A stretch of 64,000 nt of DNA, from assembly GCA_949317995.1 (NCBI GenBank), contig OX439047.1, positions 35,998,950-36,062,949 on the forward strand. Reading direction: 5' to 3'. The notes beneath the pieces are model-generated. The model was not told the origin of the DNA, did not search any database, and saw only the letters and a list, made by a program, of their open reading frames with translations. A program made the translations under genes and the position numbers. This document shows, in pieces, positions 346-48,139 of this stretch. Source of the DNA: Acholoe squamosa (Eukaryota > Annelida > Polychaeta > Phyllodocida > Polynoidae). Numbering within the stretch: the stretch's first letter is position 1; each line of letters begins with the position of its first letter.

Positions 346-2610
346 TTGTTTTCCATGTGTGTCAGCCATCTTTGTTTTAGGAAACACAGGGATCCAGCTC
401 ATATATTGTCAATTTTAATCTTCAAAAGTTATCAGATGGATGTTAGTGACCATTGGGACACCTCAACTAGCTAATTTTATTGTTCTCACTATATATCGGC
501 CATCTTTGTTTTAGGAAACACAGGGATCCAGGCCATATATGGTCAACTTCGATCTTCAAAAGTTATCAGATGGATGTTAGTGACCATTGGGACACCTCAA
601 GTACCTAATTTTATTGTTTTCCATGTGTATCGGCCATCTTGGTTTTCGGAAACACAGGGATCCAGGTCATATGTGGTCAATTTTGATCTTCAAAAGTTAT
701 CAGATGGATGTTAGTGACCATTGGGAGACCTCAACTACCCAATTTTGTTGTTTTCCATGTGTGTCGGCTATCTTTGTTTTAGGAAACACAGGGATCCAGG
801 TCATACATGGTCAATTTTGATCTTAAAAAAAAAGTTATAGATGGATGTTAGTGACCATTGGGACACCTCAACTACCCAATTTTATTGTTTTCCATGTGTG
901 TCGGCCATCTTTGTTTTAGGAAACACAGGGATCCAGGTCATATGTGGTCAATTTTGATCTTCAAAAGTTATCAGATGGATGTTAGTGACCATTGGGAGAC
1001 CTCAACTACCCAATTTTGTTGTTTTCCATGTGTGTCGGCCATCTTTGTTTTAGGAAACACAGGGATCCAGGTCATACATGGTCAATTTTGATCTTAAAAA
1101 AAAAGTTATAGATGGATGTTAGTGACCATTTGGACACCTCCACTACCCAATTTTATTGTTTTCCATGTGTGTCGGCCATCTTTGTTTTAGGAAACACAGG
1201 GATCCAGGTCATATGTGGTCAATTTTGATCTTCAAAAGTTATCAGATGGATGTTAGTGACCATTGAAAGACCTCAACTACCTAATTCTATTTTTTTTCAA
1301 TATGTGTCAACCAACTTTGTTTTAGAAAACACAGGGATCCAGGCCATATATGGTCAACTTTGATCTTCAAAAATTATCAGATGGATGTTAGTGACCATTG
1401 GGAGACCTCAACTACCCAATTTTATTGTTTTCCATGTGTGTCGGCCATCTTGGTTTTAGGAAACACAGGGATCTAGGTCATATGTGGTCAATTTTGATCT
1501 TCAAAAGATATCAGATGGATGTTAGTGGCCATTAGGACACCTCAACTACCTAATTCTATTGTTTTCCTTGTGTGTCTGCCATCTTGGTTTTAGGAAACAC
1601 AGGGATCCAGGTCATATGTGGTCAATTTTAATCTTCAAAAGATATCAGATGGATGTTAGTGACCATTGGGACACCTCAACTACCTAATTCTATTGTTTTC
1701 CTTGTGTGTCGGCCATCTTGGTTTTAGGAAACACAGAGATCCAGGTCATATGTGGTCAATTTCGATCTTCAAATGTTATCAGATGGATGTTAGTGACCAT
1801 TGAAAGACCTCAACTGCCTAATTCTATTGTCTCCATATGTGTCGGCCATCTTTGTTTTAGGAAACACAGGGGTCCAGGTCATATATGGTCAACTTCGATC
1901 TTCAAAAGTTATCAGATGGATGTTAGTGACCATTGGAAGACCTCAACTACCTAATTCTTTTGTTTTCCTTGTGTGTCGGCCATCTTGGTTTCAGGATCAC
2001 AGGGATCCAGGTCATATGTGGTCAATTTTGATCTTCAAAAGTTATGAGATGGATGTTAGTGACCATTGAAAGACCTCAACTACCTAATTCTATTGTTTTT
2101 CATATGTGTCGGCCATCTTGGTTTTAGAAAACACAGGGATCCAGCTCAAATATGGTCAATTTTGATCTTTCAAAGTTATGAGGTGGATGTTAGTAGTCAT
2201 TGGGAGACCTCAACTACCCAATTTTATTGTTTTCCATGTGTGTCGGCCATCTTGGTTTTAGGAAACACAGGGATCCAGGTCATATGTGGTCAATTTTGAT
2301 CTTCAAAAGTTATCAGATGGATGTAAGTGACCATTGGGACACCTCAACTACCTAATTCTTTTGTTTTCCTTGTGTGTCGGCCATCTTTGTTTCAGGAATC
2401 ACAGGGAGCCAGGTCATATGTGGTCAATTTTGATCTTCAAAAGTTATCAGATGGATGTTAGTGACCATTGGGACACCTCAACTACCTAATTCTTTTGTTT
2501 TCCTTGTGTGTCGGCCATCTTGGTTTCAGGAATCACAGGGACCCAGGTCATATGTGGTCAATTTTGATCTTCAAAAGTTATCAGATGGATGTTAGTGACC
2601 ATTGTGACAC
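346..2610. repeat. Satellite of about 17 copies of a 135-bp unit
   Basis: The landmark CGGCCATCTTTGTTTTAGG followed by AAACACAGGGATCCAGG recurs at about 365, 499, 631, 765, 902, 1037, 1173, 1308, 1441, 1576, 1711, 1845, 1978, 2112, 2247, 2377 and 2512. Spacing is 130-137 bp, mostly 134-136. Most copies contain a BamHI site (GGATCC). Short ORFs of 73-89 codons inside are simply the unit read through until a stop, and length changes of 1-3 bp move the frame between copies. This is satellite DNA, not a repeat protein. Confidence 0.95.
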
Positions 2611-2637
2611 CACCACCACCAATACCACCACCACACT
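2607..2637. repeat. CCA-type microsatellite at satellite edge
   Basis: The last 135-bp unit runs straight into an interrupted CAC/CCA repeat, which ends the satellite array. It marks the boundary with unique DNA. Confidence 0.8.
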
Positions 2638-44459: not shown

Positions 44460-46880
44460 ACACTATCATTGATTACGCAGAGCTCTCTAATCTAAGCAAC
44501 TGCTAATCGAGAAGCAGTTAAATTTGAATTTCATTTTATACTGAGTTCCACATTATTTTTGAAGGTAAAGAAAGCTAGGTATACATGTGAGGAAATCATT
44601 GATCTTAGTGACCAGAAATACATATATCTGAGGTCTGATTCCTATAACTGTCTCTGTGTAACATCTTCTAAACTAAAATTCTGTAGGTCTATTGCATATC
44701 AAAACATCCTCCTTCATCCATCCATACATCTAACTTCATCTAGTGACACTGTATGTGTATAACGCTCTGGGGATATTTTTCCATGTTTGCCCTATTCAAA
44801 ATACATCATATACAGTGTCGAAGATTGCCCCAAGTGCTATGCTATACTATAAATGATATCGACTCTAGTCTCTGCACCAAAACACCAGCAGCCGGTACAG
44901 CCACCCCCCCCCCCATACACCAACTCTCCCCTCCCCCAACCACAGTAGTAACCACTGGTCCAGTCAGCCTGTTAATTAATAATGCAGATCCTTTTTGCCA
45001 GGACAGCCTGTCCATGGGCTCCAGGGCCTGTAGTATAGCGTGCAGCGTACCACTCCCTGACCGTTCCCCTGCATCGATCTCCAACTAAATACTCTTAAAG
45101 TAGTCCTTAACCTGCCGCCACCGCACAGTCTTATTCTGGTCTGATTCCGATCAACAACAGACTCGACCACATTAGAGTCTACTAACAGTCTTATACTAGT
45201 CCATACTGCAGATAGATAAGCTAGGGTTCACAGTAATGCTCATTGGTGGATTGCAGAAAAGGCACTGGGTACATGGCCAATTAAGGAGATTTGTATTGTA
45301 TGGCACAAAGCAAATATGGGATTAGATAGGGGTTTGTATAAGAGTCCTAGGTGTATATGAGAAGTAATTTTTGGATTTGTAGGAAGGTCGAGGGATAAAC
45401 TAATAGCATTGCTCTGGTGTGAATAATGGGGGTCTTATGAATATGTTGTAAGCATTGCATCAGTGAGCAAATAAGTGTACATTACTATGTGCTTATGATG
45501 TTGTACATGCACAAAGGCTATTGGTGGTTGCTGCTTGGGGTGGTGCGACCATGTGTTACTACTACTACTCCTTTCACCTCTGTATTACCACTTCTCCATT
45601 CCTCCAGGTCCTTAGTTCCATGTCCAGTTGTAATATCATGAACTGTACTCCCACCTGTAAGCTCCTCCAGATGCCTTAGACCAGGGCCTCCAGTGGGAAA
45701 GGCACTGTGTATGTGTCAATAGACCAGAGCAATATCCCCTGAGCAAACGTAACTGGACCTAGCAGATTATGCTCTTAGGGGTCCATAGGTGCTCTCTCAT
45801 ATATTTACACTGTCAGCATAATATTATCATTCACAGGTCTCTTATCAAGGCATTTTGAAGAGAAAATAAACGTCAGGGGCATGGGGAATTAGGGGAGCTA
45901 TGTTTGTTCTGCTTGGCATTAGCCACTTAGCAGTTCCTGGTGCATTATATGGGGCTAGGTAATAAAGGCACATTAGAATGGCTATGTTTTATAGGTACAC
46001 AACTTCTGAATATAGAATTATAGTCAATCATGACTACACCTTATTATAAGATATGCCAAAATCGGCGCAGGTAGAATTCCAGACTAAAGTAGAGTACACA
46101 TGTACTGCGCAAGTGCATAAATGTCATTCTCAAACCAGTTGAGGGGTAAACGAGAAAATGATAAAGTGTTTTTTTTTCTCAGATATATGAAATGTTGTCG
46201 TATTTATAAGCGAAGGTTCATGTAACACCATATCATGTATACATAGCTCTTTTTCAGTTGTTGTTCAAGTTCAATACGAATGTATAAGTATTAATGGTAA
46301 TGTCCCAGGTCAGGAACCTTTCATGAACTAGACCTAATATAAGAGCTCATTAAGTTTGGTAAGCAATACCTGCGTGTACTACCTGATCCTTTCATAATAC
46401 ATGCCACGATATATTACACTACTTTGAACAAGTTTCCTGATTCAACCAAATACGTTGTGTAAACCCATGGAATTAGTTCCAACTAGAAGATGTATATACC
46501 TTGAACTCTATGTACATTCCACGTCAAAATGGCAGAAATGAAGCAGACCTATGCATCCTGGGAACATCGAGGTAAATACTTAGGTGGGGAACATAGCGAT
46601 TAACACCCCTTTCAGAGTACTCTGAGAAGATTAAATACCTTCTTCAGGTTCTGTACATAGAAAATCACATAAGGAAAGATTTGGGGCATTAGGGAGTAAG
46701 CTGGGAAGATGTACAGTTGGAGAGCCAAAAAACATCCCCTAACCTTTGAGTAGGTTTGGGTTTACTACCAGATAAATTCTGAATCATCGAAGAGTTGTTG
46801 GAGACCTTCCACATTCCCAAAAGCTTTGAGAAGAGCTAGTTCCCTTCATGGTTTTATTATTCCTAATGATGGGGGCGGGA
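44460..46880. other. No supportable gene
   Basis: The open frame at 44753-45088 covers a C-run (about 44904-44912) and overlaps minus-strand open frames at 44842-45170. It shows no recognisable domain. The remainder is AT-rich unique DNA. Confidence 0.4.
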
Positions 46881-46882
46881 AA

Positions 46883-47384
46883 GTACGAGACCCCTAATAG
46901 GACATACTAAAAATAATTTTTCCCCCAGAAAAAATATTCTTGTGGGTACTGAAGAATTCTTGCGGATACTGTACAATATCTGCATGTACAAAAACAATTC
47001 TTGCAAACACTGAGCAATTGTGTGGATACTGAACAATTCTTGCAGATACTGAACAATATCTGCATGTACAAAAGAAAATTCTTGCAGATACTAAACAATT
47101 CTTGCAGGTATGGAGCAATATATGCAGAATCCTTCAAGAATCCTCCTGTATTTTCAAGAACCCTCCTGTATATGCAACAATGCTCCTGTACCCGCTGGAA
47201 TCTTCCTGTACCCACAGGAATTCTCTTGTACCCACAGGAATATATTTTGCATGGAAAAACCTTTTTATGTTTCCTGTTTCCGCAAGAATGTTCCTGTTTC
47301 CACAGGAATGTTCCTGTACCTGCAAGAATATATATTGCATGAAAAAAATCTTTTTAGCATGTCCTAATAGGGGCTTCATACTAC
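46883..47384. mobile_element. Foldback element A with 20-bp-repeat arms
   Basis: The left end contains CCCCTAATAGGACATACTAA and the right end its inverse (GCATGTCCTAATAGGGGC). The left arm is made of 20-bp units like AATTCTTGCAGATACTGAAC. The right arm consists of inverted units like GTTCCTGTACCTGCAAGAAT. A 16-18 bp TATTTTGCATG-like motif occurs near the inner right end. The structure matches Foldback (FB)-type transposons, where the inverted termini themselves consist of tandem subrepeats. There is no transposase ORF. Confidence 0.8.
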
Positions 47385-48131
47385 GCCCCTAATAGGACAT
47401 GTCAAAGAAAACATTTTCATGCAAGAAATATTCCTATGGGTACAGGAGTATTCCTGCAGGTACAGGAGTATTCCTGCGGATACAGGAGTATTCCTGCAGG
47501 TACAAGAATATTCCTGCGGGTACAGGAGCATTCTTGCAGGTACAGGAACATTTTTGCAGAGGCAGGAGCATTCTTACGGATACAGGAACATTCCTGCAGG
47601 TACAGGAACATTCTTGCGGAAACAGGAGGATTCTTGGGAGCACACTCATATTCTTTGGAATGATGAAGATGATGATGACGATAAACTCTTCAAGCTCCCA
47701 AATAAATGTTTCTGCACCTGTAAGAATCGTTTCTGTACTGGCAGGAATATTTTTCGTACCCACAAGAATGTTTTGTACCCAAAAAGATTCTGTCTGTATC
47801 CGCAAGAATAGTTATTTTTTGCATGTTCTTCTTTAAACAATCAAATTGCAAGAATGTTCCTGTGCCTGCAGATCTTCCTGTATCCATAGGAATCTTCCTG
47901 TATCTGCATGAATCTGCCTGTACCTCCAAAAATGTTTCTGTACCCGCAAGAATTGTTTCTGTACTCGCAAGAATTGTTTTTGAACCTGCCAGAATTTTTC
48001 AGTATCCGCAAGAATTGTTTAGTATCTGTAAGAATTGTTCAGTATCCACAAAAATTGGTCCGTATCCGTAAGAATATCTTTCTGGTGAAAAAAATTATTT
48101 TTGGTATGTCCTATTAGGGGCTCCGTAGTAC
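47385..48131. mobile_element. Foldback element B with 20-bp-repeat arms
   Basis: It begins GCCCCTAATAGGACATGTCA immediately after element A and ends with TATGTCCTATTAGGGGCTCC. The left arm (about 47440-47640) holds about ten 20-bp units of the form ATTCCTGCAGGTACAGGAGT. The right arm (about 47700-48080) holds the inverse units (for example TTTCTGTACCCGCAAGAATT). A unique centre near 47641-47695 includes GATGATGATGACGATAAAC. The outermost right arm is nearly the inverse of the left arm of element A. Long open frames on both strands here come from the repeat and are not genes. Confidence 0.8.
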
Positions 48132-48139
48132 AGCCTTTT

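What the first reader, a model, noticed from the sequence alone, without database searches (positions are those of the whole stretch)
46883..48131. Two head-to-tail foldback elements built from 20-bp repeats
Both elements end in CCCCTAATAGGACAT-type termini. Their inverted arms are tandem arrays of a 20-bp unit (ATTCCTGCAGGTACAGGAGT and variants), forward in the left arm and inverted in the right. Outer arms of A and B mirror each other, as do the two inner ends at the junction, so alternative hairpins of about 0.5 kb, 0.75 kb and 1.25 kb are possible. This is the architecture of Foldback/Galileo-type transposons and may be an undescribed family. The unit itself is close to self-complementary (CCTGCAGG).
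Basis: partly seen in the sequence, partly recalled or inferred. Interest (0 to 1): 0.75.

Follow-up and report, generated by a model that had tools for sequence, protein, structure and literature searches.

The report
Foldback transposon of the IS3EU kind

Summary
Confirmed: two abutting foldback elements (A 46884-47380, B 47379-48127) whose arms are inverted arrays of a 20-bp unit. They belong to a genome-wide family: the exact tip TACGGAGCCCCTAATAGGAC occurs 1,396 times (reversed control 0). Copies carry 6-bp target duplications (62% match against 29% between loci, no excess at other lengths; 45 of 48 loci). TACGG..CCGTA ends plus 6-bp duplications are the published marks of IS3EU, not of Galileo (P) or Mutator foldbacks. 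A related family in the same genome (tip TACGGAGCCCTGGAAAGGACAT) includes two 98%-identical copies with a 21-bp subterminal array and an rva_4/IS3-like integrase gene, and a 442-bp foldback of the same tip. Best reading: non-autonomous IS3EU foldbacks, arms grown from a subterminal, presumably transposase-binding, array. New variant of a known kind. Unexplained extra: 261 of 1,396 exact tips follow CGTA-N, the inverted tip (reversed-order control 4); in 10 of 10 altered clean copies the edge bases of the 6-bp duplication still match while the middle does not.

The parts
46884..47380 (.). Foldback element A (497 bp): tip TACGAGACCCCTAATAGGACAT at the left, CTTCATA-type tip at the right
   Evidence: tips; arms; fold of 46884-47382 z -10.3
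46936..47107 (+). A left arm: 8.5 copies of a 20-bp unit ATTCTTGCAGATACTGAACA
47133..47329 (-). A right arm: same unit family in inverted orientation (TRF rows 47133-47190, 47179-47241, 47271-47329)
47374..47385 (.). A/B junction CTTCATACTACG: 12 nt between GGGG and CCCC; the two tips share TA
   Evidence: 5 of the 16 exact junctions in the genome also have 12 nt
47379..48127 (.). Foldback element B (749 bp): left tip TACTACG.., right tip CTCCGTA (exact family consensus)
47439..47633 (+). B left arm: 9.8 copies of the 20-bp unit
47872..48084 (-). B right arm: inverted 20-21-bp units
46878..46883 (.). Left flank GGAAAG: candidate left copy of the 6-bp target duplication of the A+B pair
   Evidence: matches right flank at 4 of 6, first and last base included (row L001); not conclusive
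48128..48133 (.). Right flank GTACAG: candidate right copy, with TAC at positions 2-4 as in the family's altered duplications
   Evidence: row L001; the window copy itself was left out of the class table by its worn left tip

Best explanation
The stretch is an end-to-end pair of non-autonomous foldback DNA transposons belonging to, or moved by, the IS3EU superfamily. Shown: shared tips, two arms of inverted 20-bp arrays, 6-bp target duplications in the family, more than a thousand exact tips in the genome, and a related coding family with a similar tip and the same type of subterminal array next to an IS3-like integrase gene. Inferred: an IS3EU transposase binds the tip and probably the repeated units, cuts at TA, and inserts the element with a 6-bp stagger. 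The arms arose when the subterminal array expanded on both sides after the coding middle was lost. Pairs such as A+B arise at least partly because new copies insert into the tips of old ones.
For: 1,396 exact 20-mer tips genome-wide, reversed control 0; 1,873 of the 16-mer, control 1. 6-bp duplications: 0.62 match against 0.29 between loci at n=6, no excess at n=3-5 or 7-12 (45 of 48 loci); 10 perfect among 28 unaltered copies, 7 of 14 in the clean single-pair subset. Period-20 arms with the unit pointing one way from the tip: 1,144 unit matches forward against 60 reverse in the first 250 bp of 192 distinct arms. 24 single-pair elements of 333-1,635 bp, in 19 of which all forward units lie left of all inverted ones. 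IS3EU marks in print: TA..TA ends, usually 6-bp TSD (PMC10045372 passages); TAYGG..CCRTA and 6-bp TSD in a set of fungal members (PMC12730594 passages). Coding relatives on C5 and C7: tip TACGGAGCCCTGGAAAGGACATCCG (19 of 25 bases as in the foldbacks), alignment between the two copies starting exactly at TACGGAG, 21-bp arrays of 8 and 15 units, gene matching Pfam rva_4 (E 5.8e-26) and, below NCBI's curated cut-offs, the IS3 (4.2e-5) and IS481 (1.1e-3) transposase models. L086, a 442-bp foldback with the coding family's tip and inverted 21-bp arms. Self-insertion: TSDs that lie inside another copy's tip, 6/6 in L060 (CTCCGT) and L061 (GCTCCG), 5/6 in L052 and L056. Fairly recent movement: L022 and L023 96.7% identical over 692 bp with different perfect TSDs.
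Against: No coding element with the exact tip of the window's family was found. The coding family's tip differs at 6 of 25 bases, its unit is 21 bp and, relative to the tip, points the other way (core GTWTCCGCAAG shared; 57 and 16 of 2,000 shuffles do as well), so cross-mobilisation is inferred. The IS3 and IS481 matches score far below the curated cut-offs (22.9 against 160 and 18.5 against 224 bits), the related C9 protein reaches only IS481 at E 0.012, and the C1 protein none. The window's own flanks match at only 4 of 6. No tree of the transposase with named IS3EU members could be built. Eleven of the 15 fetched junction loci, and the window's own junction, show no self-insertion TSD of 5 or 6 of 6, and with this many comparisons a 5-of-6 match can be chance.
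Confidence: 0.82

Rival explanations
1. A Foldback/Galileo-type (P superfamily) or Mutator-type foldback element.
For: Long inverted arms made of short tandem units and arm length varying between copies, as described for Galileo, Tm1 and Tetris (passages).
Against: 6-bp duplications, against 7-bp flanks in Galileo, 9 in Tm1, 8-10 in Tetris; TACGG..CCGTA ends; IS3/IS481-like transposase in the related coding family. P- and MULE-type transposases were not searched for.
Confidence: 0.05
2. An ordinary minisatellite or satellite cluster that happens to be inverted.
For: Arms are tandem arrays, and termini are reiterated head to tail in some copies (L026 and L028: 5 and 7 tips at about 80-215 bp).
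Against: Over a thousand dispersed identical tips, period-20 units of fixed direction from each tip, 6-bp duplications.
Confidence: 0.02
3. A and B are one element: an inverted dimer of an asymmetric monomer, inserted as a unit, rather than two insertions.
For: Outer arms are most alike and inner arms are most alike by identity; the outer flanks (GGAAAG/GTACAG) match at both edge positions, whereas for A alone and for B alone the flanks match at 1 of 6.
Against: Identity differences are small and B left with B right scores as well as the inner pair; a 4-of-6 match has roughly 6% chance odds (my estimate from the 0.29 background); self-insertion is seen for other pairs.
Confidence: 0.35

Closest known systems
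IS3EU / GingerRoot DNA transposons (Repbase superfamily; PMC10045372 and PMC12730594, passages seen)
   Same: TA..TA (TAYGG..CCRTA) ends, 6-bp TSD, IS3/IS481-like DDE transposase in the related coding family
   Different: No foldback arms of tandem units in the passages I saw; the window's copies encode no transposase that I could see
Galileo (P superfamily foldback of Drosophila; PMC3573991, passages seen)
   Same: [quoted passage not shown] subterminal repeats proposed there as transposase binding sites
   Different: 7-bp flanking sequences, P-type transposase; here 6 bp and IS3-like
Tm1 (Mutator/Phantom foldback of root-knot nematodes; PMC3169594, passages seen)
   Same: Foldback TIRs with a short (about 14 bp) repeated motif, MITE-like and coding members in one genome
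   Different: 9-bp TSD, MULE-domain transposase
Tetris (foldback of Drosophila virilis; PMC4079207, passages seen)
   Same: Apparently non-autonomous foldback with internal tandem repeats that can seed arrays
   Different: 8-10 bp TSD, assigned there to Mutator, no coding partner found
Sea urchin TU elements (recalled; nothing read here)
   Same: Inverted arms of short tandem repeats (recalled)
   Different: 15-bp unit and 8-bp TSD (recalled)

Membership tests
IS3EU superfamily | TA..TA / TAYGG..CCRTA termini | tested here: met
   TACGGAG in 113 of 177 sampled termini, 150 of 177 begin TA; 1,396 exact genome-wide. In the window one of four tips is exact, three have 3 mismatches in 22
IS3EU superfamily | 6-bp target site duplication | tested here: met
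   Family: (0.62 against 0.29 at n=6 only). Window copy alone: 4 of 6, inconclusive
IS3EU superfamily | IS3/IS481-like DDE transposase between the tips | tested here: inconclusive
   Present downstream of a related tip on C5 and C7, far end not seen; none found with the window family's exact tip
IS3EU superfamily | Transposase groups with named IS3EU members in a tree | not testable with these tools
   No Repbase sequences on hand
Galileo / P superfamily | 7-bp TSD | tested here: not met
   No excess match at n=7 (0.23 against 0.21)
Galileo / P superfamily | P-type transposase | not tested
   No search for P-type transposases was made
Mutator-type foldback (Tm1, Tetris) | 8-10 bp TSD | tested here: not met
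   n=8, 9, 10: 0.27, 0.24, 0.26 against 0.25, 0.24, 0.25
Foldback architecture (structural class) | Long terminal inverted arms built of short tandem units | tested here: met

The most novel reading that the evidence does not exclude
These elements leave hybrid target duplications: the first and last base of the 6-bp duplication stay target-derived, while up to four middle bases on one or both sides are rewritten as the inverted complement of the element's own tip (N-CGTA-N-TACGG). This would record a gap-repair step in which the freed 5' tip of the non-transferred strand folds back over the 6-nt gap and serves as template: a palindromic-nucleotide process, somewhat like P nucleotides in V(D)J joining, in an integrase-type transposon. 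(Probability raised from 0.30 to 0.35 after the clean-subset recount.)
Probability: 0.35. Interest if true: 0.68.

Novelty: new variant of a known kind. Interest (0 to 1): 0.47.

Why it matters
Foldback elements are known mainly from the Mutator group, with Galileo in the P group (passages); a case in an IS3-like, integrase-type group would support the idea that the foldback build arises repeatedly by expansion of subterminal arrays. This genome holds both a putative coding element with such an array and a foldback with the same tip, so the step from one to the other can be studied. The altered target duplications are a quantitative sequence signature that makes a claim about gap repair after IS3EU insertion testable.

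Tried and rejected
Circle-junction origin of pairs (bacterial IS3 style, recalled: head-to-tail ends with a short fixed spacer): considered because the 16 exact junctions have discrete gaps of 9, 12, 13, 17 and 20 nt (1, 5, 4, 4 and 2 cases). Set aside as the main account because two pairs are self-insertions with exact TSDs and two more at 5 of 6; it is not excluded for the rest.

CGTA-N flank as a remnant of a joined neighbour: disfavoured, because that would need 15-nt junctions; none of the 16 exact junctions has one (a single 15-nt junction of worn tips turned up in L050). CGTA-N flank as a longer terminus of a subfamily: disfavoured, because first and last duplication bases still match the other side (altered copies: 21 of 25 and 19 of 25 over all loci; 10 of 10 and 10 of 10 in single-pair loci; 0.39 and 0.29 between loci). 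CGTA-N as chance: 261 of 1,396 against 4 of 1,396 for the same bases in reversed order.

Other rva_4 genes as partner: the stretches of 9.0 and 8.0 kb around C1:117166045 and C9:9211091 show no tip better than 9 mismatches in 25; the loci at C1:61.69, C4:6.07, C12:25.9 and C1:79.2 Mb were checked only in the roughly 3-kb loci returned, not further. The 5.4-kb pair C2:35900692-35906135 with the coding family's tips was not read.

Tip in viral contigs and in prokaryote genomes: 0 and 0. Rfam and tRNA scans of the window: nothing. PDB sequence search with the C9 transposase: nothing. The host species was not identified. In print: among the results listed (30 of 35; 15 of 695; 10 of 38) and 89 I saw no title or abstract start that describes an IS3EU foldback or this altered duplication; passages were seen in six papers, and no whole text was read.

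Sampling limits: of the 48 loci behind, one is the window copy, 7 are its best BLAST matches and 40 come from contig C1; 3 (L037, L041, L046) had no usable pair. add the 15 junction loci, most of them from other contigs; one search dropped 2 duplicate loci and 8 without usable outer tips (L001, L017, L033, L041, L045, L046, L049, L062). The altered classes were defined after the flanks had been looked at.

Full report
What was checked. The reported feature is there. Four copies of the tip lie at 46884 (+), 47359-47380 (-), 47379 (+) and 48106-48127 (-), with none elsewhere in the window and none in 100 shuffles. Between them lie arrays of a 20-bp unit, forward in the left arms and inverted in the right arms. 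The palindrome is far beyond chance, and element A alone folds with z = -10.3. The element ends are not at CCCC but 7 bases further out.

A family, not a local oddity. The 16-mer CCCCTAATAGGACATR occurs 1,873 times exactly (reversed control 1), and the full 20-mer tip TACGGAGCCCCTAATAGGAC 1,396 times (control 0). In the 63 loci read, 192 distinct arms share the tip consensus TACGGAGCCCCTAATAGGACATACCAAAAAT (mostly above 90% per position from base 8 to base 30), followed by period-20 arrays that run in one direction from the tip (1,144 unit matches against 60 reversed). Twenty-four elements with a single pair of tips are 333-1,635 bp long with a mean arm identity of 0.71; in 19 of them all forward units lie left of all inverted ones, in 5 the two sets overlap. 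Some copies reiterate the tip head to tail, up to seven times at 81-113 bp (L028). Two copies, L022 and L023, are 96.7% identical over 692 bp and have different, perfect TSDs, so movement was fairly recent.

Target duplications. Immediately outside TACGGAG..CTCCGTA, 45 of 48 loci gave a usable pair of flanks. The match is 0.62 at six bases against 0.29 between different loci, and at background for 3-5 and 7-12 bases. Perfect cases include GTCACC, GTGATG, GTGACG, GTAACG, TAAACC and GAAACT. The window's own flanks (GGAAAG, GTACAG) match at 4 of 6 and prove nothing alone.

Superfamily. In print, IS3EU elements have TA..TA ends and usually 6-bp TSDs (PMC10045372, passages), and a set of TET-bearing fungal ones ends TAYGG..CCRTA with 6-bp TSDs (PMC12730594, passages). 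The window's family fits both. A search of the host genome with the Pfam integrase core rva_4 (chosen from recall as a likely IS3EU domain) gave 16 matches (487 candidates, 150 scored). Two of these, on C7 and C5, are copies of one element, 98.4% identical over 3.3 kb. Upstream of the gene the similarity between the two copies begins exactly at TACGGAGCCCTGGAAAGGACATCCG, which matches the foldback tip at 19 of 25 bases. Directly behind it is a tandem array of a 21-bp unit, 8 copies on C5 and 15 on C7. The encoded protein matches rva_4 (E 5.8e-26). In NCBIfam it matches the IS3 (4.2e-5) and IS481 (1.1e-3) transposase models and nothing else up to E = 1, both far below the curated cut-offs, as one expects of a distant relative; the C9 protein matches IS481 at 0.012 and the C1 protein nothing. 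The homologous region of this copy is spread over more than one frame (intron or break), and it was left as it is.

The bridge. The coding family's tip occurs 962 times with up to 2 mismatches (control 0), including, in the 100 places listed, several facing pairs about 420-490 bp apart. The one such pair read, L086, is a foldback: the same tip and arms of 21-bp units (GTTTCCGCAACTT..) forward on the left and inverted on the right. So in this genome a putative coding element with a subterminal array and a foldback of the same tip family exist side by side. The window's family is a sister set with a related tip. The unit cores of the two families resemble each other (GTWTCCGCAAG) but point in opposite directions from the tip; 57 of 2,000 and 16 of 2,000 shuffles do as well, so this is suggestive only.

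Why A and B lie end to end. A strict search found abutting tips at 16 places (16 forward and 12 reverse matches, symmetric places being counted on both strands). Of the 15 junction loci read, two show one copy inside another's tip with its own exact TSD (CTCCGT in L060, GCTCCG in L061), and two more match at 5 of 6 (CTCAGT/CTCCGT in L052, CGGAGC/CTGAGC in L056); the other 11 show none, or one partner tip was out of reach. Self-insertion is therefore one real route to such pairs. The window's junction has the 12-nt geometry of L061 but no matching TSD for A or B alone (1 of 6 each), so its own origin stays open; an inverted dimer inserted as a unit is the rival.

An unexplained regularity. In copies that lack a clean TSD, the first and last bases still agree while the middle four do not. 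On the left positions 3-5 read GTA (usually CGTA at 2-5), on the right positions 2-4 read TAC. Among 53 loci, 28 have no such alteration (N1 agrees in 21, N6 in 23), 12 are altered on the left, 5 on the right and 8 on both sides; pooled, altered copies keep N1 in 21 of 25 and N6 in 19 of 25, against 0.39 and 0.29 between loci. These use outermost tips, so nested copies add noise. In the clean subset of 24 loci with exactly one pair of tips, 10 are altered: N1 agrees in 10 of 10, N6 in 10 of 10, the middle in 7 of 40 positions; among the 14 unaltered, N1 agrees in 13, N6 in 12, the middle in 39 of 56, and 7 are perfect. The classes were defined after looking at the flanks. Genome-wide, CGTA-N precedes 261 of 1,396 exact tips, and the same four bases in reversed order precede 4. 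CGTA is the reverse complement of the tip TACG across one base. In the 150 sampled termini whose tip begins TA, the letters A, T, G, C at flank positions -2 to -5 fall off outward (0.60, 0.53, 0.43, 0.31). The coding family shows it too (79 exact cases; L086 has GCGTAC/GTACTC). My inference is gap repair that copies the folded-back 5' tip; nothing here shows it directly.

Verdict. Observation confirmed; foldback interpretation right in architecture and wrong in affiliation. A new variant, an IS3EU foldback, with a coding relative in the same genome.

Noticed in passing
L004, L024, L035, L047, L048 and others; 261 places genome-wide: Middle of the 6-bp target duplication rewritten as CGTA (left) or TAC(G) (right), the inverted tip, while its edge bases still match the other side
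   Followed up: partly
G000:C3:19167301-19167742 (L086) and 962 tips genome-wide: A second foldback and coding family with tip TACGGAGCCCTGGAAAGGACAT and 21-bp units
   Followed up: partly
G000:C1:117166045-117166590 (L064), G000:C9:9211091-9211624 (L065): Further rva_4 integrase-core genes without a related tip nearby; L064 is the best match to the family (E 6.5e-56)
   Followed up: partly
L026, L028, L054: Tip modules reiterated head to tail at about 80-215 bp, up to seven tips on one side: a possible route from transposon end to satellite
   Followed up: no
window 346-2611: Tandem array of a 134-bp unit, 16.9 copies, 90% matches, next to a 38-bp array at 1-254
   Followed up: no
L035 flanks: The inverted match continues beyond the 6 bp (TGAGTCTG..CAGACTCA around the insertion), perhaps a palindromic target
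   Followed up: no
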